Notes: generated by a model not told the origin, from the sequence alone. Shown: positions 11,187-26,878, counted from the stretch's first letter. The stretch is 35,268 nt of DNA from an uncultured Solirubrobacteraceae bacterium (GCA_902806175.1 CADCVQ010000022.1:1-35268); one strand, 5' to 3'. Numbers and translations are program-made.

Positions 11187-11227
11187 CAGTCCCTCGCGGG
11201 TCTGCACCGGGCGTGCTCGTGGCCGTC

Positions 11228-11233
11228 TACGCT
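11228..11233 (+). promoter_or_regulatory. -10 box of the lasso biosynthetic operon (leaderless)
   Basis: TACGCT is separated by exactly 6 bases from the GTG at 11240, which places the transcription start at the start codon. The same hexamer is found at the precursor promoter (18584) and before the Wzy-like gene (33265). No clear -35 element is visible. Confidence 0.5.
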
Positions 11234-11239
11234 GCGGGG

Positions 11240-12181
11240 GTGGCCTCCGAGCAACACGCGTCGCCTTCGGCCGAGGCCAAGCTCACCGTGTGGTCGCTGC
11301 ACGTAGACGGGCTGACGGCAGAGCTCATGCGGGGCTTCGCCGAGCGAGGCGTCCCATTCATCCTGCTCAAAGGTCCCGCGATCGCCCGCTGGCTGTACGA
11401 CGACGGCAGCGTGCGCCCGTACGCCGACTGCGACCTGCTCGTCGACCCGCGCCAGATCACGGCCGCCCAAGCGATCCTGCGCGAGCGCGGCTTCGAGGAC
11501 ACCGCCAGCCCGCTGGCGCACCCGCGCAAGGACTCGCACGAGTGGCAGCGCGCCCAGCACCACGTGGATCTGCACACGACCCTGATCGGGATTCGGGCTG
11601 CCCCGCAGGAGGTGTGGGACGCTCTGTCGTCCACGACCGACAGCGAGCAGGTGGGCGGGATGGTGGTCCGGGTGCTCGACCGGCCCGGCCGCACGTTGCA
11701 CGTGGCCCTGCATGCCGCTCAGCATGGCCGCGACGAGGAGAAGCCGCTCGAGGATCTGCGCCGCGCCCTCGAACTGGTTCCGGAGCAGACGTGGCGGGAT
11801 GCCGCGGATCTGGCGCGGCGCCTGCGCGCCACGGAGGCGTTCGCCACCGGCCTACGGCTGCTGCCCGCCGGTTCGGCACTCGCGACGCGCCTCGACCTGG
11901 TCTCAGCAGCCTCGGCCGAGGCCACGCTGCGCCTCGAGCCGGTACCGCTCGCGCTCGCCTTGGAGCACCTGGCAGAGACCCGAGGATGGCGTGCTCGCCT
12001 GGATATCCTGTGGCGTGAGCTGTTCCCGACCGTGGCGTTCATGCGCTGGTGGTCGCCGTTGGCGCGTCGCGGTCGGCTGGGGCTCATCGCCGCGTACTGC
12101 TGGCGTCCGCTGTACCTCCTGCTCCATCTCGGGCCCGGGTTCGTCGCATGGCAACGTGCTCGTCGTGGCGCGGCCCGATGA
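11240..12181 (+). CDS. Nucleotidyltransferase family protein of the lasso cluster (NTP_transf_5 type)
   Basis: Protein of 313 residues resembling the uncharacterised nucleotidyltransferases (NTP_transf_5) repeatedly found in lasso-peptide clusters that also carry HprK-like kinases, such as paeninodin-type clusters. The core motif is visible as FILLKGPAIARWLYDDGSVR followed by YADCDLLVDP, with an Asp-x-Asp pair likely to bind metal and nucleotide. An HxD-like element (HHVDLHTTL) follows. A likely role is adding a nucleotidyl or related group to the phosphorylated peptide, but this is inference. The GTG at 11240 is preferred over GTG 11213 because a -10 box lies 6 bases upstream. Its stop overlaps the ATG of the ABC ATPase gene (ATGA), so it belongs to the lasso operon. 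Confidence 0.8.
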   Translation: MASEQHASPSAEAKLTVWSLHVDGLTAELMRGFAERGVPFILLKGPAIARWLYDDGSVRPYADCDLLVDPRQITAAQAILRERGFEDTASPLAHPRKDSHEWQRAQHHVDLHTTLIGIRAAPQEVWDALSSTTDSEQVGGMVVRVLDRPGRTLHVALHAAQHGRDEEKPLEDLRRALELVPEQTWRDAADLARRLRATEAFATGLRLLPAGSALATRLDLVSAASAEATLRLEPVPLALALEHLAETRGWRARLDILWRELFPTVAFMRWWSPLARRGRLGLIAAYCWRPLYLLLHLGPGFVAWQRARRGAAR

Positions 12182-12897
12182 GCGCGCGGCCGAGCGCTGA
12201 CGCCGCGCTCGTGGCAGGAGATCAACCTCGGTTCGATCCGGACGGCCGCGCCCCCGCCCTGATCGTCGAGGAAGTTACGAAGGTGCTCGGGAAGCGCGCC
12301 ATCCTCGACGGCGTCGACCTCGCGCTGCCAGCCGGCACGACGGCGTGGATCAGCGGCGGCAACGGCGCCGGCAAGACGACGCTCATGCGGCTCATGGCCG
12401 GGCTGATCGTCGCCGACCGCGGAACGGTCAGCTTCGACGGGCTGCGTGTTGACACCGATCGCCGCGCCTACCAGACAAAGGTCGGCTTTCTCGCCGCGGG
12501 CGACAGCGGGTTGTACGCCCGCCTGACGGTGCGCCAGAACCTCGACTTCTGGGCGGGCCTGGCGTTCGTCCCGCGATCGCGGCGCCGCGCGACCGTCGCC
12601 CGCGCGGTCGAGCGCTTCGGGCTGACCGATCTTGCCAGCCGGCGGGCGGACCGCCTGTCGTTGGGACAGCGCCAGCGGGTGCGCCTGGCCCTGACCTTCC
12701 TCCACGCACCCCGGCTGGTGCTGCTCGACGAGCCGTCGGCGAGCCTCGACGACGACGGGGTCGCGCTCCTGCTGAGCGCGGTGGACGAGCACGCGGCGAC
12801 CGGCGGCACGACGGTCTGGTGCGCGCCGGCGCGCCAGACCGAGGTCAGGCACAACCGCGCGTTCGTCGTGCGAGACGGACGACTGGAGCCGGTATGA
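12178..12897 (+). CDS. ABC transporter ATP-binding protein (lasso peptide export/immunity)
   Basis: ATPase subunit of a two-component ABC-2-type exporter, 239 residues. It has Walker A (GGNGAGKTT), a signature written LSLGQRQRVR instead of the usual LSGGQ, and Walker B (LVLLDEPSASLDDDG). The final switch region is short (TTVWCAPARQ, without the usual His). It pairs with the permease that follows through an ATGA overlap. In lasso clusters such a transporter usually exports the mature peptide and gives self-protection; no other substrate is suggested by the context. Confidence 0.9.
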   Translation: MSARPSADAALVAGDQPRFDPDGRAPALIVEEVTKVLGKRAILDGVDLALPAGTTAWISGGNGAGKTTLMRLMAGLIVADRGTVSFDGLRVDTDRRAYQTKVGFLAAGDSGLYARLTVRQNLDFWAGLAFVPRSRRRATVARAVERFGLTDLASRRADRLSLGQRQRVRLALTFLHAPRLVLLDEPSASLDDDGVALLLSAVDEHAATGGTTVWCAPARQTEVRHNRAFVVRDGRLEPV

Positions 12898-13706
12898 CAC
12901 GCGTGCGCGCCTACACCGGGGCCGGGGCGGCCGTGCTGCGGCGCGACTTCCAGACGGCGCTCAGCTACCGCCTGCAGCTGATCGGGACCGTTTTCGGGTC
13001 GTTCGTCAGCCTCACGATCTTCTACTACGTGTCTCGCCTGGTCCGGGTGGAACCGTTCGAGTCGCCCGACGAGTACTTCGCCTTCGTGCTCGTCGGCCTC
13101 GTCATCTTCGCGATGCTGCAGGCGCTGCTCGGCGGCGCGCCGGTCATCGTCAGGCAGGAGCTCGTGGCCGGAACCTTCGCGCGCGTCGTGCTCTCGCCGC
13201 TCGGCCCGGTGGCCGGCATCTGCGCGATGCTGCTGTTCCCGTTCGCGATCGCGCTGGTCACCGGGACCGTGACCCTGCTCTTCGGCGTGGCCGCCTTCGG
13301 GGTCGATCTCGATCTGCCACGGGCGCTGCTGGGCTTCCCGGTGGCGTTCCTCGCCGCGCTGTCGTTCGCGCCGTTCGGCCTTCTCAGCGCGTGTCTGGTC
13401 CTGATCGTCAAGCAGTCGGCGCTCGGTGTCGGGCTGCTGCTGGCCGCCATCTCGCTCGTATCGGGCCTGTACTTCCCGGTAGACCTGCTGCCCGGATGGA
13501 TCGGCTGGGCCGCTGACGTCCAGCCGTTCACGCCGGCCGTCGACCTGATGCGCCACCTGCTCGTGAACGCGGAGATGCAGAGCTCGCCGAGCGTCGCCCT
13601 CCTCAAGCTGGCCGCCTTCGGGGCAGCGATGTTGCCGCTGTCGCTGTGGCTGCTGGCGCAGACGATCGGGTTCACGCGCCGGCGGGGCACGATCATCGAG
13701 TATTGA
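12894..13706 (+). CDS. ABC-2 type transporter permease (lasso peptide export)
   Basis: Integral membrane protein of 270 residues with about six hydrophobic helices, e.g. FGSFVSLTIFYYV, YFAFVLVGLVIFAMLQALLG and LGVGLLLAAISLVSGLYF. The layout, including the short amphipathic N-terminus and YFPVDLLPGWI before the last periplasmic loop, is that of ABC-2 permeases. Start and stop both overlap neighbouring genes by 4 and 1 bases, so it is co-translated with its ATPase and the B2 gene. It probably exports the lasso peptide. Confidence 0.88.
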   Translation: MTRVRAYTGAGAAVLRRDFQTALSYRLQLIGTVFGSFVSLTIFYYVSRLVRVEPFESPDEYFAFVLVGLVIFAMLQALLGGAPVIVRQELVAGTFARVVLSPLGPVAGICAMLLFPFAIALVTGTVTLLFGVAAFGVDLDLPRALLGFPVAFLAALSFAPFGLLSACLVLIVKQSALGVGLLLAAISLVSGLYFPVDLLPGWIGWAADVQPFTPAVDLMRHLLVNAEMQSSPSVALLKLAAFGAAMLPLSLWLLAQTIGFTRRRGTIIEY

Positions 13707-14188
13707 TGGCTGCCGCGCGATCCGATCGCCGCAGGCCTCGGCCGCTCGCGGTCGCGGAGCTCGCGGCGCCGTTGCCCGCGCGCCGAAAGCTGCGGCTCAC
13801 CGGAGAGGTCCTCGCTGCCTACTGCCGCGTGCGCTGGTGGCTGCGCCAAAACGAACTGCCCGAGGTCGTGCGGCGGCTGCGCGGATGGCAACCCGTCGGC
13901 GCGGGGGCGTCGGGTCAAGCGCGCGAGCCGGGCGAGGCGGAGTACGAGAGCGGGCTGCGGTTGGGCCGGGCGGTCGTGCGCACACTGCGCCTGCTGCCGA
14001 CGGACGGCCGCTGCCTCATGCGCTCGCTCGTCCTGACGGGGCTCCTCGCTCGCCGCGGGATCTCCAGCACGCTCATCATCGGAGTGCGTCCGGCGCCGGA
14101 GTTCGCGGCGCACGCCTGGGTCGAGCACGAGCGTCGCCCGCTCCTGCCGCCGGGTGAGCGGGGCTACGGCCGCCTGACGGAGATGTAG
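13706..14188 (+). CDS. Lasso peptide leader peptidase B2 (transglutaminase-like)
   Basis: B2-type leader peptidase with a transglutaminase-like Cys-His-Asp fold that removes the leader from the precursor. The 160-residue length is typical. The catalytic Cys sits in DGRCLMRSLVLTGLLARRG and the catalytic His in FAAHAWVEHE, the two diagnostic motifs of lasso B2 proteins. The N-terminal part has the usual helix AAYCRVRWWLRQNELPEVVRR. The ATG at 13706 overlaps the last base of the permease stop codon. The gene ends GYGRLTEM followed by TAG at 14186, a normal family ending. The downstream kinase continues immediately in the -1 frame. Confidence 0.92.
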   Translation: MAAARSDRRRPRPLAVAELAAPLPARRKLRLTGEVLAAYCRVRWWLRQNELPEVVRRLRGWQPVGAGASGQAREPGEAEYESGLRLGRAVVRTLRLLPTDGRCLMRSLVLTGLLARRGISSTLIIGVRPAPEFAAHAWVEHERRPLLPPGERGYGRLTEM

Positions 14189-14301
14189 GGGCTCCCGTCG
14201 CGCACTGGGGCTTCAACGCTTTCGGCCTCGGGCTGCGCTCGGAGCTGACGTTCGCCGGTCTGACACCCTCCATCCCGCTGGAGCCCGTCGTCTCGATCCG
14301 C

Positions 14302-15108
14302 GTGATCGGTGCGGCACAGCTCGACGGCGCCTGGACCGGCGCGAAGCACACGTCGGCTGGGGTCCTGCCCGACGGCTGCCGCTGCGTGGCCGAGCGAGCC
14401 GCCGGCGGCGAGCTGCGCATCACCTACGGCGACCGGGCGACGTATCTGCTGTCGGCGGACGGGCGGACGCTCCTGTGCTCGCCGGCGCAGCTCGATGAGC
14501 AGGCATGGCGACGCTTCCTGCTCGACGCCGTCCTGCTCAAGGCCAGCGAGGCCCACGGCCTGGAGGCGCTGCACGCCAGCGCCGTCGAGGGGCCGGATGG
14601 CGTGCTCGCGTTCGCGACGCAGGCCGGCGGCGGAAAGTCGAGCCTTGCTTCGGAGCTCGTCCGCCGCGGACACCCATTCTTTGCGGATGACGCGCTGACG
14701 ATGCGACGCGACGACGCGGCGATCCGGGCGCATCCCGCCCCACCGCTCATGAACTTCCCGCTCGAGCACCCCGAGGGCTTCGCCGCCGTCGAGCTCGGGA
14801 CGGTGCTGGACGTCGTGGGTGCCGAAGCCTGGCTGGCCGTGCGCCATGCCGCCACCGGACCATGCCGGGTCGCGGCCATCCACCTCCTGGACCGGCGCCC
14901 GGGCCTGCGGCTCGGCCTCGACCTGCTGGCGCCGAGCCCGATGCCTCTGCTGGACCACGTGCTCGCAGACCGCGGGTCGCCGACGCGGATGGCCCGTCGT
15001 TTCGAGTTGCTCGCCGACCTCGTGGAAGACACGGCGATCTACCGGCTGCGCGCCGATCCGGCGACGCCGGTGCGCCGGCTCGCGGATCTCGTGGAGGGCT
15101 CCCTATGA
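14302..15108 (+). CDS. HprK-like serine kinase 1 of the lasso cluster (true N-terminus uncertain)
   Basis: Kinase related to the C-terminal domain of HPr kinase/phosphorylase; relatives in paeninodin-type clusters phosphorylate a Ser of the lasso precursor. Visible motifs are LEALHASAVEG, the P-loop TQAGGGKSSLASEL, and HPFFADDALTM with the catalytic Asp pair. From the first canonical start (GTG 14302) the product has 268 residues. However, the same frame is open from 14158, and 14188-14301 encodes a family-like N-terminus (HWGFNAFGLGLRSELTFAGL, compare RAFGIDLHANFRAAGI in kinase 2). No ATG, GTG or TTG precedes that segment. The real protein may start at a CTG (14233) or another rare codon, or be made by a -1 frameshift from the B2 gene; a sequencing error is also possible. 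It ends in an ATGA overlap with the PqqD-like gene. Confidence 0.8.
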   Translation: MIGAAQLDGAWTGAKHTSAGVLPDGCRCVAERAAGGELRITYGDRATYLLSADGRTLLCSPAQLDEQAWRRFLLDAVLLKASEAHGLEALHASAVEGPDGVLAFATQAGGGKSSLASELVRRGHPFFADDALTMRRDDAAIRAHPAPPLMNFPLEHPEGFAAVELGTVLDVVGAEAWLAVRHAATGPCRVAAIHLLDRRPGLRLGLDLLAPSPMPLLDHVLADRGSPTRMARRFELLADLVEDTAIYRLRADPATPVRRLADLVEGSL

Positions 15109-15521
15109 CAAGCGATTGGGACAACGGTGAATCCAGGCGCTACCCTTCGGCGGCTTCGAAGGACGGCCATGAGGCGTCCACCCACGAACCCGAGGAAGCG
15201 CGCATGGTCGAGGACACGCCGAACAGAGACGCGACGTTGCTGGCATCCTCCGTCCGCCTGCCCGAGCACGTCGTGCACCGAGGATTCGCGGCGGAGACCG
15301 TAGTCCTGAACCTCAAGACGGGGAAGTACCACGGGCTCAACCCGGTGGGCGGGCGCATGCTCGAGGTCCTCGAGCAGACGGAGACCGTGCAGCAGGCGGC
15401 CCGGCAGCTCGCGGCGGAGTACGAGCAGCCGATCGAGACGATCGAAGAGGATCTCTGCAGCCTGTGCGCCGACCTCGCCGCCCGTGATCTGATCGAGACG
15501 AATGCCCCCGGGGCTGACTGA
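15105..15521 (+). CDS. Lasso peptide RRE protein B1 (PqqD family)
   Basis: PqqD-like RiPP recognition element that binds the precursor leader and delivers it to the B2 peptidase. The diagnostic part is LASSVRLPEHVVHRGFAAET, VLNLKTGKYHGLNPVGGRML and a C-terminal helix pair ending LAARDLIET. From the ATG at 15105, which overlaps the kinase 1 stop, the product has 138 residues. An internal ATG at 15204 after GAGGAAG gives 105 residues, closer to usual B1 length. The extra 33 residues are polar and unlike the family, so the shorter form may be the main product. The 3' end overlaps kinase 2 by 20 bases. Confidence 0.9.
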   Translation: MTSDWDNGESRRYPSAASKDGHEASTHEPEEARMVEDTPNRDATLLASSVRLPEHVVHRGFAAETVVLNLKTGKYHGLNPVGGRMLEVLEQTETVQQAARQLAAEYEQPIETIEEDLCSLCADLAARDLIETNAPGAD

Positions 15522-16542
15522 ACCGCGCCCCGCGACGGGCGCGTCTGACTCCCGGACGCCGGCCTGGACGGGACGCGCTTTCGGGATCGACCTGCACGCG
15601 AACTTCCGCGCCGCCGGGATCGTCGAGCAGGCCGGCCCGACAGCCCCGCACGAGGACGATGGCGTCCCCGCGCGCCGCAGCCATCTGCAGCTGGTATCTG
15701 ACGTGGCGCTGGAGGCGGCCTGGCCGGCGGCGGGCACGAGGACGCTGGGCTACCTGCACGACGACGAGGGTCGCAGCGTGCTGACGATCGCCGAGCACCC
15801 GGATGCCGGCTTTCGGCTCGAGGCCTCGTACTACGGCCGGTTCGTGGTCAGCGCCGACGGGGGCCGCGTCCTGTGTGCGCCGACCCCGGTCGCGGATTGG
15901 GAGTGGCAGGCCTTCGTGGTCGGGCAGATCCTGCCGCTGCTGGTCGTGCTGCACGGCCTCGAGGGGCTGCACGGCAGCGCCGTCTCCTTCGCAGACGATG
16001 CGATCGGCCTGGTGGCGTCCTCGTGCGGCGGCAAGAGCTCGCTGGCGGTCAACCTGGTCCGCCGGGGCGCCGCGTTCGCGGCCGACGACGTGCTCGCCCT
16101 CGAGCGCGACGGCGCCGGCACCGCGCTGCACCCGGGCCCTGCCCTGGCGAGCGTGCGCCATGCCGAGGCCGACGTCATCGGGCCCGCGGGACTCGCCGAG
16201 CTGGGCACCGTGGTAGGGCGCAACGACCACGAGCTGCGGCTCGCGATGCAGCGCGACGCGCGTCCGCTGAACCTCGCCGCGCTGTACTTCATCGAGCGGG
16301 CCGAGCATGAGCCATCGCTGACGATCGAGGCCATCGAGCCCGATCCGCTTCAACTGCTGAGCGGCAGTCACAACGCCTTCGTACGGACGGCGGAGCGGTT
16401 GGTCGGCCAGCTCGACCTGTACGCGCACGTATCGCGCTCGGTGCCGGCCTTTCGTGCGGTGGTCTGGCCCGGCATCGACGCCTATGGCCTGGCTTGCCTC
16501 ATCCAGGACCACGCCCTCCAGATGATCGCGGGCTCGTCGTGA
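15502..16542 (+). CDS. HprK-like serine kinase 2 of the lasso cluster
   Basis: Second HprK-like kinase, 346 residues, clearly homologous to kinase 1 but divergent. Landmarks are RAFGIDLHANF near the N-terminus (about residues 25-35), LEGLHGSAVSF, the P-loop ASSCGGKSSLAVNL (about 171-184) and AAFAADDVLALERDG with the Asp pair. The P-loop differs from kinase 1 (CGGKSS against GGGKSS), but the Lys and Ser are kept in both, so both may bind ATP. The N-terminus is extended by about 25 polar residues. The ATG lies within the last codons of the PqqD-like gene and the stop overlaps the cyclase GTG. Having two kinases in one lasso operon suggests two phosphorylation events or one non-catalytic partner; the sequence alone cannot decide. 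Confidence 0.85.
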   Translation: MPPGLTEPRPATGASDSRTPAWTGRAFGIDLHANFRAAGIVEQAGPTAPHEDDGVPARRSHLQLVSDVALEAAWPAAGTRTLGYLHDDEGRSVLTIAEHPDAGFRLEASYYGRFVVSADGGRVLCAPTPVADWEWQAFVVGQILPLLVVLHGLEGLHGSAVSFADDAIGLVASSCGGKSSLAVNLVRRGAAFAADDVLALERDGAGTALHPGPALASVRHAEADVIGPAGLAELGTVVGRNDHELRLAMQRDARPLNLAALYFIERAEHEPSLTIEAIEPDPLQLLSGSHNAFVRTAERLVGQLDLYAHVSRSVPAFRAVVWPGIDAYGLACLIQDHALQMIAGSS

Positions 16543-18512
16543 TCCGGGCGATCGCAGGCGTCTACGATCCGAACGCCACGGACGCGCTGCGGGCCCGCGT
16601 GGTCAGCGCCCTGGAACCCGACGGTGCCGCCGAGGCGATACAGGACGGTCCGCTCGCCGTCGCCTGGACCGCAGGCCCGACGTCGTCTCCGGGCGGCGGT
16701 GAGGAGCCGCTGTGCGTGCTCGATGGTCATCTCACCAATGTCGGCGAACTCGCGGAGCGCGCGGGCCTGGCGCCGGGGCAGGACCCGGAACGCGTGCTCG
16801 TCGGCGTCTACGCGCGCTTCGGGGAGGGCATGTTCGAGCAGCTGCGCGGAGACTGGGTGGTGCTCGTCTGGGACCGGCGCACGCGGCGGCTGCTCGTCGC
16901 TCGCGATCAGGTCAACGCGCGGCCGTTGTTCGTGCGCATTGCCGGCGACCGGGTCCTCTTCGGCTCGGAGGTCCGAAACCTCCTGCGGCTGGTCGATCGA
17001 CGCCCCGCTCCGGACAGGGGCGCCGTCGCGCGGTGGTTGGGGCACAGCCGCCTGCCGCCCAACCGGACGCTGTACGACGGCATCACGCGGCTGCAGGCCG
17101 GGCATCTGCTGCGGATCGTCGACGGCCGCGCCGCGCTGCGACGCTACTGGACGCCGGTGCTGGGCCCGCGCCTGGACGGGTCGCGCGAGGATCTCGCCGC
17201 GCAGCTGCGAGCCCATGTCATCAGCGCAGTCGAGCGCCGTTGCGAGCCGGGCGTCACCGCGATCACGCTCAGCGGCGGGCTGGACTCCACCACGCTTGCC
17301 GCCGTGAGCACGCGCTGCCTGCCGCCCGAGCGCGCTGCGGGCCGCACCACCTATTCGATGACGTTCCCCGGGGACGCTGGCAGCGACGAGACCGAGCAGA
17401 TCGACACGACCATCGCCGAGCTCGGGCTCGCGAACACGCGGATCGCCGTCGAGAGCAGCGGCATCCTGTCGGGATCGCTGGAGTACCTACGCACCTGGGA
17501 GCTGCCGCCGACCGCCACAACGCTCGCCTACTGGCTGCCGCTCGGGCACCGGATCGCCGAGGACGGCATCAGGATCATCCTCGACGGCGAGGATGGTGAC
17601 GACCTGTTCGGGTACTCGCCGTGGCTCGCGGCCGACCTGCTGCGGCAGGGGCGCCCGCTGGCCATGCTGCGGCTGCTGCGCCGGACTCCCGAGCTGTCCG
17701 ACGTCCCGACGCGCAGGATGCTCGCATCGGCGTACAGGCTGGGCGTCAAGGGCAGCATGCCGCATGTCGTGCACAACGTCATGCGGCGGGTGCGCGGGCC
17801 GGGGGTCACCGTGCCCGCATGGCTCAACGACGCGTCGGCACGCGCCTACGACGAGAGCGAGGTTTCCTGGCAATGGAAGCTGCCGGGCCAGCCCTTGTGG
17901 TGGACGAGCCGCGTCGACACGCTGATGACCGGCGGGTTCCCCGCCTCGCTCTTTGACCACGCGCGCCGGCGAGCGGCGATGGCGGGACTGGAGCGTCGCC
18001 ACCCGTACGCCGACGTGGACCTGTTCGGCTTCGTGGACCGGCTGCCGCCCGAACTGGCCTTCGACGCGACGTTCAACCGGCCGCTGCTGCGTCAGAGCAT
18101 GGCCGGGCTCGTTCCCGACCGCATCCGCCTGCAGGCGCGCAAGATGGACCTCAACACGTTCGTGGACCGCTGCATCGCCGCCGACCTGCCCATCATGCGG
18201 CCCCTCATGCGCGCCGACGACGCCGAGGTTCGAGCGTACGTGCGCCCGGAGGCGCTGCAGGAGCTGTTCGCGCCGACGACCGTGCTGACGACGACGCGGA
18301 CCTCACACGGTCATCTCGGATTTCGTGCGTGGCGCCTGATGGAGATGGAGTGCTGGCTGCGATCTCAGGAGCGGCCGACGTTCGCGGACGACATGCTGGC
18401 GCGAGCGGATGGTCTCGCCCGACCCGTCTATACATTTGCCCACGTCGTCGCCCCCGGCGCCGACGCGGAACGCAAGCCGACGGCGGATCAAGGCGCGTCA
18501 CGCGGCGCCTGA
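16539..18512 (+). CDS. Lasso cyclase (asparagine synthetase B homologue)
   Basis: Lasso peptide cyclase of the AsnB-like family, which adenylates the ring-forming Asp/Glu side chain and joins it to the core N-terminus. The 657-residue product keeps the two-domain AsnB layout. The N-terminal glutaminase-like domain starts IRAIAGVY and lacks the nucleophilic Cys2 of true amidotransferases, as expected for a cyclase. The synthetase domain has the PP-loop TLSGGLDSTTLA (about residues 243-254) and the LDGEDGDDLFGY motif (about 348-359). GTG 16539 overlaps the stop of kinase 2 (GTGA). Contrast this with the true asparagine synthetase-like gene at 25004-26878, which begins MCGICG. It is the last gene before the precursor, which has its own promoter. 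Confidence 0.93.
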   Translation: MIRAIAGVYDPNATDALRARVVSALEPDGAAEAIQDGPLAVAWTAGPTSSPGGGEEPLCVLDGHLTNVGELAERAGLAPGQDPERVLVGVYARFGEGMFEQLRGDWVVLVWDRRTRRLLVARDQVNARPLFVRIAGDRVLFGSEVRNLLRLVDRRPAPDRGAVARWLGHSRLPPNRTLYDGITRLQAGHLLRIVDGRAALRRYWTPVLGPRLDGSREDLAAQLRAHVISAVERRCEPGVTAITLSGGLDSTTLAAVSTRCLPPERAAGRTTYSMTFPGDAGSDETEQIDTTIAELGLANTRIAVESSGILSGSLEYLRTWELPPTATTLAYWLPLGHRIAEDGIRIILDGEDGDDLFGYSPWLAADLLRQGRPLAMLRLLRRTPELSDVPTRRMLASAYRLGVKGSMPHVVHNVMRRVRGPGVTVPAWLNDASARAYDESEVSWQWKLPGQPLWWTSRVDTLMTGGFPASLFDHARRRAAMAGLERRHPYADVDLFGFVDRLPPELAFDATFNRPLLRQSMAGLVPDRIRLQARKMDLNTFVDRCIAADLPIMRPLMRADDAEVRAYVRPEALQELFAPTTVLTTTRTSHGHLGFRAWRLMEMECWLRSQERPTFADDMLARADGLARPVYTFAHVVAPGADAERKPTADQGASRGA

Positions 18513-18559
18513 CGCCCTCCCGCGCGCCCGCTTCCCGCCAATTGCAACTTTTTCGGTCC

Positions 18560-18589
18560 TTGCTCATGAGGGGGCAGCCGTCGTACGCT
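18560..18589 (+). promoter_or_regulatory. Promoter of the lasso precursor gene
   Basis: TTGCTC (18560-18565) and TACGCT (18584-18589) are separated by 18 bases, the best -35/-10 pair in the window. It lies in the 124-base gap between the cyclase and the precursor. The predicted mRNA has a roughly 40-base leader with the ribosome binding site AGAGGAG before ATG 18637. Confidence 0.6.
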
Positions 18590-18636
18590 CCCGCGACTGC
18601 CATCGGCCATGACGGCCAACAGACAGAGGAGCAAGC

Positions 18637-18750
18637 ATGTACGAGAAGCCCACGGTACGCGACTACGGCGACCTGACCGAGCTCACGGCGGTCGTCCAGC
18701 AGGGCAGCGAGGAAGTCGGCGTCAAGAGCAACGTCGTCAAGGTCGCCTGA
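18637..18750 (+). CDS. Lasso peptide precursor (A gene), 37 residues
   Basis: Short gene, MYEKPTVRDYGDLTELTA followed by a 19-residue predicted core. The leader fits the lasso pattern YxxPx[L/V]xxxGx5T exactly: Tyr2, Pro5, Val7, Gly11 and Thr17. Thr at -2 places the cleavage between Ala18 and Val19, giving the core VVQQGSEEVGVKSNVVKVA. Ring closure would use Glu25 or Glu26 (core positions 7 or 8). Position 1 is Val, not the common Gly, Ala, Ser or Cys, and there is no C-terminal Ser for the kinases; Ser24 lies in the ring and Ser31 in the tail. If cleavage is one residue earlier, the core starts with Ala and Glu is at 8 and 9. A ribosome binding site (AGAGGAG) precedes the ATG, and a hairpin follows the stop. 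Precursor assignment is strong; core boundaries are inferred. Confidence 0.88.
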   Translation: MYEKPTVRDYGDLTELTAVVQQGSEEVGVKSNVVKVA

Positions 18751-18757
18751 CGCCTGC

Positions 18758-18774
18758 GCGCCCGTTTCGGGCGC
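18758..18774 (+). terminator. Hairpin directly after the lasso precursor gene
   Basis: GCGCCCG and CGGGCGC form a perfect 7-base-pair stem with a TTT loop, starting 7 bases after the precursor stop. There is no T tract, so it may act as a weak terminator or protect the 3' end of a short precursor mRNA, keeping the regulator gene behind it at lower level. Confidence 0.5.
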
Positions 18775-18857
18775 ATCGCGGAAGCACCTGCGCCTCGGCG
18801 GTCTTCCGTCGGGGCGTTTTGCTGCGTGCGGTAGGTTCTCTCCACTCAAGGGATCGA

Positions 18858-19607
18858 GTGGAGGGCACCCTGAGGCAAGCTTCGACAACGGATAGTCGGG
18901 AACCCCGTGCGGATGTCAGGGAGGGCACGGCGCCAGGCGCCGGTCGCGCGCCGCAACTCGAGGTGGGGGTGACGGCGCACGAGCAAGCGGTCTCCCGGCG
19001 CATCTGCGCGGCGCTCGCCGGTGACGGGCTCGGCCCAACGCTCGAGGCGGCCACAGCCGAGCAGCTCGTCGCCGCCGCCGCGCGCGGGCGGCCGCAGGTC
19101 GTGGTGTTCGCCGGCCAAAGGTCGGGCTCCGAGCGCGCCGCGGACATCCGGCTCGTGCGCGACGCGATCGCCGGCGTCCACGCGGTCGTCGTCTCGTCGA
19201 CGCCGGGCGGTCGTGGTGTACGTAAGGCGTTGCGGGCGGGGGCCACCGGGTTCGTCTTCGAATCGCAGATCGAGTCGGCGCTGACGATCACCGTGAGAGC
19301 GGTGCTCGCGGGACAGGTCTCGATCCCCGTCCAGCTCATCCACCACACCGATCAGCCGGCGCTGTCGGCACGCGAGAAGCAGATTCTCGGAATGGTCGTG
19401 TTGGGCTTTCAGAACCAGGAGATCGCCGCGAAGCTGCATCTTGCGGAGACCACGGTCAAGAGCCATCTCTCGTCGGTGTTCAAGAAGCTCGATGTCGGCT
19501 CGCGCAAGGAGGCCGCGGCCTTGGTGCTCGATCACCGCGAGGGCCTGGGGCCGGGGATCTTGACCATGCCCGGCGCCCAAGCGCACTCCGGCGACGGGCG
19601 GCCGTGA
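18858..19607 (+). CDS. LuxR-type response-regulator-like transcription factor
   Basis: DNA-binding regulator of NarL/LuxR type, 249 residues from GTG 18858. The C-terminal helix-turn-helix is clear: LSAREKQILGMVVLGFQNQE and LAETTVKSHLSSVFKKLDV. The N-terminal part looks like a receiver domain (KALRAGATGFVFES near its end), but the strand that should carry the phospho-accepting Asp reads QVVVFAGQ. It is therefore probably a pseudo-receiver, or it is controlled by a ligand or partner. No sensor kinase is nearby. A -10 candidate, TAGGTT, lies at 18832-18837; the exact start is uncertain. Its stop overlaps the GTG of the FkbM methyltransferase gene. Position at the end of the lasso cluster makes it a candidate regulator of the peptide and/or EPS genes. 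Confidence 0.82.
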   Translation: MEGTLRQASTTDSREPRADVREGTAPGAGRAPQLEVGVTAHEQAVSRRICAALAGDGLGPTLEAATAEQLVAAAARGRPQVVVFAGQRSGSERAADIRLVRDAIAGVHAVVVSSTPGGRGVRKALRAGATGFVFESQIESALTITVRAVLAGQVSIPVQLIHHTDQPALSAREKQILGMVVLGFQNQEIAAKLHLAETTVKSHLSSVFKKLDVGSRKEAAALVLDHREGLGPGILTMPGAQAHSGDGRP

Positions 19608-23845: not shown

Positions 23846-25011
23846 GGGCCGCGGCCGGCGTATCGCATCCTCCGCCTCGACGCCGCCGGCCGCGAACGCG
23901 CTGACCAGGCCGACTGGTCGATCAGCTCCAGCAGGAGGTCTTCGACGCGGTGCGACACCGACGGCCATGCGAACTCGCGTGCCCGTCGCGCACCGGCCGC
24001 GCCGATCGCCTGGCCCCGAGAACGGTCGAGCAAGAGTTCGGCGATCGCCTCCGCCACGGCGATGTGGTTGCGCGGATCCACGAGCAGACCGGTGACCCCG
24101 GGGACGACGGCATCCAGGGCCCCGCCCTCGTCGCCCGCCACGACTGGCAACCCGTGCGCACCGGCTTCGAGGTAGACGATGCCGAACCCCTCTCCCGCGA
24201 AGCCGCCTGCCGGAATGCGGCTGGGCATGGTGAACACATGGGCGGACTGCAGGCAGCGATCGCGCTCGGCGTCGGAGATCGTCCCCAGGAAGCGAACGCA
24301 ATCCTGTAGTCCCTGGTCGCGGGCAGCGCGCTGAAGCACCGGTCGTAGCGGCCCGTCGCCGATCACGACCCACTCGACGTCGGGAACGCGAATTCGGATC
24401 AGCGCGAGCGCCCGCAACACCACGTCGTGGCCTTTATAGCGTTCGCCGACGCGCGCGACAGTGAGCACCGTAGGCCGCGCAGCGCGCCCGCCCCGGCCCG
24501 ACCGGTGCGGGATGTCGACGCCCGGCGAGATGAGGTGGACGCGGCCCGGATCGGCACCGGCGGCGAGTGCCAGGTCTCGCGTGTAGCGGCTGACAGCGAC
24601 GACGCCGTCCGCCCGCCGCACCGCGAACGCGGCCAGCGCCGGATGGGCGCCCACCTCCTTGGCATGCAGGTACTGGACCATCGGCACGCGCAGCGCGGCG
24701 CCGACCACTGCGGCGGCGGGCGCCGTGACGATGTGCGCGCTGAGCACGGCCGCTGGCCGCAGACGCGCGGCCTGCGTCAAAGCGAGCGCGTTGAGCGCGC
24801 CGATCGCCGGCCTGTGCCCCGCGCGCGAACGTACGCGCAACACGTCCAGATCGCGGGCGTCGTCGTACGCGCTTGCGCCGGGGCCATCGATCGTCAGCAC
24901 GCGTGGGCGCAGCCGGCTCATGTGCTCGACGATGCGCCCCACGAGCAGCTGGATGCCGCCCGCGGCGGGCGGATAGTCCGGCGTGAGCACCAGCACGCGC
25001 GGCTCAGGCAC
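23842..25011 (-). CDS. Family-4 glycosyltransferase (b)
   Basis: GT4 glycosyltransferase, 389 residues, of the PimB/mannosyltransferase-like type. It begins RVLVLTPDYPPAAGGIQLLV and carries VLTVARVGERYKGHDVVLRA and the E-x7-E motif GEGFGIVYLEAGAHGLPVVA. GTG 25011 lies 8 bases inside the end of the asparagine synthetase gene, so the start is chosen by overlap and by the first conserved strand. The last 20 residues are Arg/Ser-rich and non-conserved in appearance. It works in EPS repeat-unit assembly; sugar specificity is unknown. Confidence 0.9.
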   Translation of the reverse strand: MPEPRVLVLTPDYPPAAGGIQLLVGRIVEHMSRLRPRVLTIDGPGASAYDDARDLDVLRVRSRAGHRPAIGALNALALTQAARLRPAAVLSAHIVTAPAAAVVGAALRVPMVQYLHAKEVGAHPALAAFAVRRADGVVAVSRYTRDLALAAGADPGRVHLISPGVDIPHRSGRGGRAARPTVLTVARVGERYKGHDVVLRALALIRIRVPDVEWVVIGDGPLRPVLQRAARDQGLQDCVRFLGTISDAERDRCLQSAHVFTMPSRIPAGGFAGEGFGIVYLEAGAHGLPVVAGDEGGALDAVVPGVTGLLVDPRNHIAVAEAIAELLLDRSRGQAIGAAGARRAREFAWPSVSHRVEDLLLELIDQSAWSARSRPAASRRRMRYAGRGP

Positions 25012-26878
25012 CGTCGTGACCTCGCCGCCGGTCCAGCCATAGGCCGAGCGCCAGCAGGGGCCAGAGCACCTGGGTGTGGTCGTGCCGGCCGGTGGCGTGT
25101 TCGTCGGCCAGGCCGCGGGCTGCGGCTCTGTCGATCCAGCCCTCGCCGTACAGGCAGCCCGCGTCCAGCTGGTGGGCCAGGGTCGGCGCGAGCGGCCCAC
25201 GCAGCCACTGCGCTGCCGGCACTCGAAACGCCGTCTTGGGACGGGGTGCGGCGTCGGCGGGCAGCACGTCGGACAACAGCGCCCGCAACAGGGCCTTGCC
25301 GCCGTCGGCGAGGTGCACGTCGGGCGAAACCGTCGCGGCGAACTCCGCCAGCTCGCGATGCAGGTACGGCGTGCGGATCTCCAGCGAGACGAGCATGCCA
25401 GCGCGATCGGCCTTGCACAGCACGTCGTCGGGCAGCCAATGGCGCTGATCGAGATTCATGAGCCCCCCGGGGACCGAAAGGGCGAGCCTGCCGTCGACGC
25501 GGTTGCGCAGGTCGTCGACCAGGTTGCTCCCCGCCGCCCGATCGGCCAGGCGCGGCCCATACAGCTGCGTGCGCAGCGCCGGCCGGCGTTCTGTCACCCA
25601 GTCGAGGTGACGCTCCAGCAGCGGGCGCCCGTCGACCAGCAGGCCAACTCGCCGTGCACGCCCCGCCAGCGGAGAGGCGCGCAGCGCGCGTGCGCCCTGC
25701 GCGCCCAGCGAGGCCGGGATGTGGCGCTGCCAGCGCGCCGCGCGGTCCAGCCAGCGGTAGCGCGGATAGCCTCCGAAGAGCTCGTCGGCGCCCTCCCCGC
25801 CGATTGCGACAGTCACCTCCCGGCGGGCCAGCTCGGCCACCGCGTGCAGGGCCGGCAGCGCCTGGTCGGCGAGCGGTTGGTCGAGGTTGGCGAGCAGGGC
25901 CGGCACGCGTTCGGCCACGTCGGCCGAGGACAGCACGAGCTCGTGATGCTCGGCGCCCAGCGCGGTCGCGGTCGCGGCTGCGGGCTGCGTCTCGCTGACC
26001 GCTCCGACGTCGTAGCCCACGGTGAACGTCTTGATCGGCGTCCGAGAATGCTTGGCTGCGATCGCGGCGATGAGCGTCGAATCGATGCCGCCGCTGAGCA
26101 GGACGCCGAGCGGCACGTCTGCGATCATCCGGCTGCGGACCGAGCCCTCCAGCAGCCGCTGGGTCTCGGCGACGAGCTCACCCCGGGGCTCGGCCGGACG
26201 CGGCGCGTAGGACGGCGGCGACCAGTACGGGCGGACCACGGCGGACTGGCCGGGCTCCCAGGTCAACAGGTGCCCGGGAGATAGCTGTCGTACGCCTGCG
26301 ACGATTGCGCCGGGACCCGGCACATACCCGAACACGAAGAACGCGTCGACGGCCGCTTCCTCGAGCTCGCTGTCGAGCTCTGCGCCGGCGCTGAGGGCAG
26401 TCAGCTCGGAGGCGAAGCTCAGCACCCCCGCCCGCTCGGAGTAGAACAGCGGCTTCTCACCGAAGCGGTCGCGGGCCAGCAGCAGGCGGCGGCGGCGCTC
26501 GTCCCACAGCGCGAACGAGAACATTCCCTCCAGCGCGTGCACGAGCTCGTCGCCGTACTCCTCGTAGAGGTGCACGAGGACCTCGGTGTCGGTCCCCGTG
26601 GCGAGGTGGTGCGCGCGCTCGCGCAGGTGGCGCTGCAGGAACGGATGGTTGTAGATCTCGCCGTTGAGCACGGCCCAGACGTTGCCGTGCTCGTTGGAGA
26701 GTGGCTGATGGCCTCCGGCGACGTCGATGATGCTCAGCCGGCGCGCTCCGAGGGCGAGGCCCGTGGCGGTGTCGACGTAGACCCCGCCGTCGTCGGGGCC
26801 GCGATGGCGAAGCGCGTCGTTCATCGCGGCGACCGCCGCGCCCTCGTGATCCGACGTTCGCCCGCAGATGCCGCACAT
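25004..26878 (-). CDS. asnB: Glutamine-hydrolysing asparagine synthetase homologue of the EPS locus
   Basis: Class II amidotransferase of the AsnB family, 624 residues. The product begins MCGICG, so the nucleophilic Cys2 needed for glutamine hydrolysis is present, in contrast with the lasso cyclase at 16539. The glutaminase domain includes RLSIIDVAGGHQPLSNE and LNGEIYNH; the synthetase domain has the PP-loop VLLSGGIDSTLIAAI and the motif GGEGADELFGGY. Homologues in polysaccharide loci are thought to amidate sugars, often uronic acids, or to be locus-associated with unclear substrate; simple asparagine synthesis is also possible. It sits 25 bases after the family-2 glycosyltransferase gene and overlaps the next GT4 gene by 8 bases, so it belongs to the same operon. 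Confidence 0.9.
   Translation of the reverse strand: MCGICGRTSDHEGAAVAAMNDALRHRGPDDGGVYVDTATGLALGARRLSIIDVAGGHQPLSNEHGNVWAVLNGEIYNHPFLQRHLRERAHHLATGTDTEVLVHLYEEYGDELVHALEGMFSFALWDERRRRLLLARDRFGEKPLFYSERAGVLSFASELTALSAGAELDSELEEAAVDAFFVFGYVPGPGAIVAGVRQLSPGHLLTWEPGQSAVVRPYWSPPSYAPRPAEPRGELVAETQRLLEGSVRSRMIADVPLGVLLSGGIDSTLIAAIAAKHSRTPIKTFTVGYDVGAVSETQPAAATATALGAEHHELVLSSADVAERVPALLANLDQPLADQALPALHAVAELARREVTVAIGGEGADELFGGYPRYRWLDRAARWQRHIPASLGAQGARALRASPLAGRARRVGLLVDGRPLLERHLDWVTERRPALRTQLYGPRLADRAAGSNLVDDLRNRVDGRLALSVPGGLMNLDQRHWLPDDVLCKADRAGMLVSLEIRTPYLHRELAEFAATVSPDVHLADGGKALLRALLSDVLPADAAPRPKTAFRVPAAQWLRGPLAPTLAHQLDAGCLYGEGWIDRAAARGLADEHATGRHDHTQVLWPLLALGLWLDRRRGHDGA

What the first reader, a model, noticed from the sequence alone, without database searches (positions are those of the whole stretch)
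11240..19607. Lasso-peptide cluster with two kinases and a nucleotidyltransferase inside an EPS locus
All core lasso functions are present (precursor, B1/RRE, B2 peptidase, cyclase, ABC exporter), together with two HprK-like kinases and an NTP_transf_5-type protein, and they are packed as one coupled operon with the precursor last. Seen in sequence: motifs and start/stop overlaps. Known: B1, B2, cyclase, kinase and nucleotidyltransferase families in lasso clusters of paeninodin type. Inferred: the product is a lasso peptide carrying phosphate-based modifications. The combination of two kinases with this gene order and core is, as far as I know, not a described system.
Basis: partly seen in the sequence, partly recalled or inferred. 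Interest (0 to 1): 0.85.

Follow-up and report, generated by a model that had tools for sequence, protein, structure and literature searches.

The report
Lasso-peptide cluster with two kinases
A soil actinobacterium carries, inside its sugar-coat gene region, a complete set of genes for a knotted 'lasso' peptide with two different kinase genes instead of the usual one; related bacteria share the set, but no kinase activity has been tested and the peptide lacks the end-of-chain serine that known lasso kinases modify.

Summary
Window 11213-18750 encodes a complete lasso-peptide cluster: NTP_transf_5 protein, two-gene ABC exporter, B2 peptidase, kinase K1, B1/RRE, kinase K2, cyclase and a 37-aa precursor (MYEKPTVRDYGDLTELTA|VVQQGSEEVGVKSNVVKVA). 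The precursor follows the cyclase by a 124-nt gap and is not translationally coupled. Both kinases carry the His-Lys-Asp-Asp motif and give HprK/PEPCK-fold models (K1's at low confidence). They are not a recent duplication: K1 forms its own clade, distinct from K2 and from single kinases of sister clusters. K1+K2 clusters occur in 5 of 232 Solirubrobacterales genomes (three family groups). Sister clusters usually sit in polysaccharide loci. Single-kinase relatives have Ser/Thr within the last three core residues, as known lasso kinases prefer; precursors of two-kinase genomes end in Pro or Ala, and this core's only hydroxyls are Ser6 and Ser13. Paeninodin-type C-terminal Ser phosphorylation is therefore impossible; phosphorylation of internal Ser is the best guess, untested. 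I found no published two-kinase lasso cluster in the open-access library; the nearest described case is Bacillota lasso/LPP loci in capsule regions, with HprK kinases and NTP transferases. Verdict: a real new variant of a known kind, recurrent but rare.

The parts
11213..12181 (+). NTP_transf_5 protein (N); start at GTG 11213 or GTG 11240
   Evidence: Pfam PF14907, 102 bits
12178..12897 (+). ABC exporter ATPase (CcmA-like)
   Evidence: TIGR01189 139 bits; ATGA overlap with the NTP_transf_5 gene
12894..13706 (+). ABC-2 type exporter permease
   Evidence: PF01061 61 bits; ATGA overlap
13706..14188 (+). B2 leader peptidase; Cys and His conserved in all six aligned sequences
   Evidence: NF033537 72.9 bits; alignment
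14158..15108 (+). kinase K1, HprK-like; open frame 14158-15108, homology from about 14209, first canonical start GTG 14302
   Evidence: H130, K151, D168-D169 of the translation from 14185 invariant in A6; HprK in PDB at 6e-8 for the K1 profile; separate clade 97/94
15105..15521 (+). B1 / RRE (PqqD-like)
   Evidence: PF05402 58 bits
15502..16542 (+). kinase K2, HprK-like
   Evidence: H157, K178, D195-D196 invariant in A7; model pLDDT 83.5 with HprK and PEPCK as top PDB folds
16539..18512 (+). lasso macrolactam cyclase (asparagine-synthase family); SGGLDS motif present, no Cys at the start of the glutaminase domain
   Evidence: NF033535 178 bits, below its 525 cut-off; PF00733 107 bits
18637..18750 (+). 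precursor peptide, leader MYEKPTVRDYGDLTELTA, predicted core VVQQGSEEVGVKSNVVKVA
   Evidence: NF033521 24 bits; hold-out HMM E=2.7e-9; leader motif shared with relatives
18790..18817 (+). 12-bp stem hairpin reaching a short T run after the precursor, terminator-like
   Evidence: fold z=-3.9 for 18748-18850; the consensus terminator scan did not list it
18930..19607 (+). LuxR-type regulator; start not determined; near the cluster in several relatives
   Evidence: PF00196 67 bits; similar genes near the cluster in L033, L036, L037, L126, L127, L129

Best explanation
A lasso-peptide cluster of a Solirubrobacterales lineage. B1 binds the YxxPxV leader, B2 cuts two residues after the conserved Thr begins the T-A pair (between Ala18 and Val19 of the precursor), and the cyclase joins core Val1 to Glu8 (or Glu7) to give a 19-residue lasso, which the ABC-2 pair exports. 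K1 and K2, two old and separate HprK-type lineages, most likely phosphorylate the precursor on hydroxyls inside the core (Ser6 and/or Ser13), possibly one site each, and the NTP_transf_5 protein may add a group to the phosphate. The cluster is part of a polysaccharide locus and is probably regulated with it. Shown here by sequence: gene content, conserved kinase motifs, clade structure, recurrence and EPS linkage. Inferred: cleavage site, ring closure, phosphorylation, its sites and its purpose.
For: Family matches. Relatives with the same gene set, with the precursor after the cyclase and a YGDLxELTA-type leader. Asp9 in all 15 relatives' cores that were compared. His-Lys-Asp-Asp in both kinases, the motif that mutagenesis showed essential in lasso kinases (PMC9266682). 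HprK fold. K1 is one side of a branch in all 200 bootstrap trees, with K1 and K2 both kept in five clusters. A precedent for an HprK-like RiPP kinase acting on a non-terminal Ser is LppK on Ser3 (PMC13381572). A precedent for NTP transferase after kinase is pseudomycoidin (PMC8498205). Polysaccharide genes flank most sister clusters.
Against: No C-terminal Ser/Thr in this core, and no Ser position is conserved across the two-kinase cores. This core departs from the Asp9 rule (Val9, with Glu at 7 and 8), and Val1 is an unusual first residue (own knowledge). Similarity of this core to the EDG cores is weak (93 of 2000 shuffles score as high). K1 lacks a canonical start codon for its N-terminal part. 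No expression or product data exist.
Confidence: 0.6

Rival explanations
1. Only one kinase acts on the peptide. The other (K1 or K2) is a regulatory or partner subunit, or phosphorylates something else such as a sugar or another protein of the polysaccharide locus.
For: This core has few hydroxyls; K1 starts oddly in the window; K1 occurs alone in G091, without lasso genes nearby and with Asp-Glu in place of Asp-Asp.
Against: Both kinases keep His-Lys-Asp-Asp in all five two-kinase clusters, K1 is always within a few kb of the other lasso genes there, and no other substrate is encoded in a constant position.
Confidence: 0.3
2. Two RiPP pathways overlap here, each with its own kinase, as in Bacillota loci where an LPP cluster adjoins a paeninodin-like lasso cluster.
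For: Those loci lie in capsule regions and each pathway has an HprK kinase and an NTP transferase (PMC13381572); G228 has several precursors in and outside its cluster.
Against: The window has one RRE, one B2, one cyclase and one precursor, and the genome shows no archaeal-type signal peptidase (TIGR02228: 0 matches in G000).
Confidence: 0.08
3. The precursor is degenerate or a decoy: the cluster is inactive, or its real substrate lies elsewhere in the genome.
For: Short, divergent core without Asp9; in G008 the precursors lie about 700 kb from the cluster.
Against: Intact leader motif and ribosome-binding site, the same position as in relatives, and intact frames for the other genes except the K1 start; the own genome has only one other leader-like hit, beside its own second cluster.
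Confidence: 0.12

Closest known systems
Paeninodin-type lasso clusters (PadeK, ThcoK, SyanK)
   Same: Split B1/B2, cyclase, HprK-like kinase with His-Lys-Asp-Asp, sometimes an NTP_transf_5 gene
   Different: One kinase and a C-terminal Ser target there; YxxP rather than WxxP leader, a two-gene ABC-2 exporter and two kinases of separate clades here
Pseudomycoidin cluster
   Same: Kinase plus nucleotidyltransferase (PsmN), which adds hexoses to the phosphate
   Different: One kinase, a C-terminal Ser and a Bacillota host
LPP (linear polyphosphorylated peptide) clusters beside lasso clusters in Bacillota capsule loci
   Same: Polysaccharide locus, HprK kinase, NTP transferase, YxxP leader, phosphorylation of a non-terminal Ser (Ser3)
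   Different: Archaeal-type signal peptidase as leader peptidase, two RREs, no cyclase for the LPP itself; none of that here
HprK_rel_A/B cassettes (TIGR04352, TIGR04355)
   Same: HprK-like kinase with a PqqD-like protein
   Different: K1 and K2 score 14-23 bits against cut-offs of 200, so they are not members

Membership tests
Lasso-peptide biosynthetic cluster | B2 leader peptidase | tested here: met
   NF033537 72.9 bits, cut-off 33
Lasso-peptide biosynthetic cluster | PqqD-like B1/RRE | tested here: met
   PF05402 58.2 bits, cut-off 23.4; below the lasso-specific NCBIfam cut-offs
Lasso-peptide biosynthetic cluster | Asparagine-synthase-type cyclase | tested here: met
   PF00733 107 bits; best NCBIfam lasso cyclase model 178 bits, under its strict cut-off of 525
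Lasso-peptide biosynthetic cluster | Precursor with YxxP leader motif and penultimate Thr | tested here: met
   NF033521 24 bits, cut-off 19; conserved YxxP..YG...LTA
Lasso-peptide biosynthetic cluster | Asp/Glu at core position 7-9 for the ring | tested here: met
   Glu7 and Glu8 if the core starts after LTA; relatives have Asp9. The cleavage site itself is inferred
Lasso-peptide biosynthetic cluster | Threaded lariat product | not testable with these tools
   Needs mass spectrometry and NMR
Paeninodin-type phosphorylated lasso peptides | HprK-like kinase with His-Lys-Asp-Asp | tested here: met
   Both kinases; motif from PMC9266682
Paeninodin-type phosphorylated lasso peptides | C-terminal Ser on the core | tested here: not met
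   Core ends in Ala
Paeninodin-type phosphorylated lasso peptides | WxxP leader motif | tested here: not met
   Leader has YEKP; WxxP rule from PMC13381572
LPP / lasso composite locus | Archaeal-type signal peptidase and a second RRE | tested here: not met
   TIGR02228 no match in the own genome; one PqqD-like gene seen in the cluster

The most novel reading that the evidence does not exclude
K1 and K2 phosphorylate two different internal serines of one lasso peptide (ring Ser6 and tail Ser13), and the phosphates are then used by the NTP_transf_5 protein and the neighbouring polysaccharide enzymes to attach sugars or to tie the peptide to the cell's exopolysaccharide: a lasso peptide that is part of, or a signal for, the polysaccharide coat.
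Probability: 0.1. Interest if true: 0.8.

Novelty: new variant of a known kind. Interest (0 to 1): 0.52.

Why it matters
Lasso kinases are known to act on a C-terminal Ser. Here two separate kinase lineages are kept together with cores that have no such Ser, in a rare but repeated cluster type of a barely studied soil order. If both kinases act, this predicts a lasso peptide with phosphate at new positions and gives a direct test of how lasso kinases choose their site. The repeated placement in polysaccharide loci, also reported for Bacillota lasso and LPP clusters, makes a link between phosphorylated lasso peptides and cell-surface polysaccharide testable.

Tried and rejected
A genome-contig scan with the cyclase alone found nothing. 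Reading the two kinases as a recent tandem duplication was rejected: they are 31-33% identical and K1 forms its own clade. An LPP composite locus was rejected: no archaeal-type signal peptidase and no second RRE. A sigma-70 promoter before the precursor was not found by the consensus scan. The AlphaFold model of K1 was poor (pLDDT 57.8), so its fold matches are supporting evidence only. Core similarity to the EDG cores was tested by shuffling and is only suggestive.

Full report
Setting. The window is contig C22 of a 4.12-Mb draft genome of 183 contigs. Named relatives of the cluster all come from Solirubrobacterales or unclassified Actinomycetota records, so the host is taken as a member of Solirubrobacterales.

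What is there. Reading left to right: NTP_transf_5 protein (11213-12181), ABC ATPase (12178-12897), ABC-2 permease (12894-13706), B2 peptidase (13706-14188), kinase K1 (frame 14158-15108), B1/RRE (15105-15521), kinase K2 (15502-16542), cyclase (16539-18512) and precursor (18637-18750). Six junctions overlap. The B2/K1 junction is odd: the K1 frame is open from 14158 and its N-terminal homology begins near 14209, but the first ATG/GTG/TTG is GTG 14302. A rare start codon, a sequence error or a real N-terminal truncation are all possible; I cannot tell which. The precursor has its own 124-nt upstream gap and a good ribosome-binding sequence. A strong hairpin follows it, but the consensus scans found neither promoter nor terminator.

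Is the precursor real? The leader passes the curated lasso leader model. In relatives the precursor lies at the same place after the cyclase, and the leader consensus YxxPxVxDYGDLxELTA is strongly kept. An HMM built from seven relatives, without the window sequence, finds it at E=2.7e-9 in the six-frame window, and the next hit is at E=2.5. All 15 relative cores compared have Asp at position 9, if the core starts after the residue that follows the conserved Thr. This one has Glu at 7 and 8 and Val at 9, so I predict a Val1-Glu8 ring (or Glu7). The core shares a GxE[DE]xxxK pattern with precursors of G228 and G008, but shuffling shows that this is weak by itself (93 of 2000 shuffles as good).

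The two kinases. Sequence models place both near HPr kinase but below curated cut-offs. A K1 profile finds HPr kinase in the PDB at 6e-8. The K2 model (pLDDT 83.5) matches HPr kinase and PEPCK; the weak K1 model does too. Both keep the His-Lys-Asp-Asp residues that mutagenesis showed essential in known lasso kinases (PMC9266682). In a tree of 21 kinases, K1 forms one clade (97/94 support, one side of a branch in all 200 bootstrap trees), separate from K2 and from the kinases of single-kinase relatives. So the pair is not a local duplication.

How common. In 232 genomes of the order, K1+K2 clusters occur in five: G000, G094, G008, G192 and G228, from three family groups. Broader samples of the class (399 genomes) and phylum (396 genomes) gave no K1-level match outside the order: best outside 120 bits in the class and 79 in the phylum, against about 268 or more for K1 members. 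The six other genomes of the same genus lack the cluster. A pattern scan of about 85,000 species genomes with the B1 profile returned only eight loci, all Solirubrobacterales or unclassified Actinomycetota; that scan can miss members.

Substrates differ between one- and two-kinase clusters. The six single-kinase cores end ...TFSN...LTFS...GYSG...GRLS...LTFT and ...FSLP: a Ser or Thr lies within the last three residues in all six. The nine precursors from the other four two-kinase genomes all end in Pro (KSTP, TSNP, PATP, PAAP, QLLP, QLFP, GMLP, GLLP, GILP), and this one ends in Ala. The numbers are small, the genomes are related, and linking the distant precursors of G008 and G228 to their clusters is inference. 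In this core only Ser6 and Ser13 carry a hydroxyl. A C-terminal Ser target as in paeninodin is therefore excluded here. An HprK-like RiPP kinase acting on a non-terminal Ser is known: LppK on Ser3 (PMC13381572).

Surroundings. The window flanks hold an initiating sugar transferase, FkbM methyltransferase, flippase and glycosyltransferase. Polysaccharide genes also lie beside the clusters of G192, G094, G228, G054, G085, G088 and L129, while none turned up in the two G008 flank genes tested. A LuxR-type regulator lies near six of the relatives. Bacillota lasso and LPP clusters have also been reported in capsule loci (PMC13381572).

What it most likely does. It makes and exports a 19-residue lasso peptide, with the two kinases phosphorylating internal Ser of the precursor and the NTP_transf_5 protein perhaps extending the phosphate, as PsmN does in pseudomycoidin (PMC8498205). 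The lasso part is well supported; the kinase chemistry is inference at about 0.6.

Known or new. Searches of the open-access library found no lasso cluster with two kinases and no Solirubrobacterales lasso study. Subscription papers and large genome-mining supplements could not be checked. I file it as a new variant of a known kind.

Noticed in passing
L075:7213-12761 (G000 contig C70): The same genome has a second, single-kinase lasso-like cluster; its precursor core (after ADHTF: DNPGQGNKSATPMATDKFGEFSHPFTSP) has no acid at positions 7-9.
   Followed up: partly
L092:7408-7758; L094:7593-7745; L125: G008 and G228 carry lasso precursors with an EDG-type core far from any biosynthetic genes (about 700 kb away in G008), suggesting several precursors served by one cluster.
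   Followed up: partly
window 14158-14302: K1 lacks a canonical start codon for its conserved N-terminal stretch; ATG 14183 is followed at once by the B2 stop TAG.
   Followed up: partly
L039:7023-8150: G091 has a lone K1-type kinase without lasso genes nearby and with Asp-Glu in place of Asp-Asp, perhaps a relic.
   Followed up: partly
window 25004-26878 (- strand): A second asparagine-synthase gene of the ordinary type (PF00733, 282 bits) sits further along the polysaccharide locus.
   Followed up: no
L073:8722-14236: The G228 cluster contains three precursors with different cores within and after one operon.
   Followed up: partly
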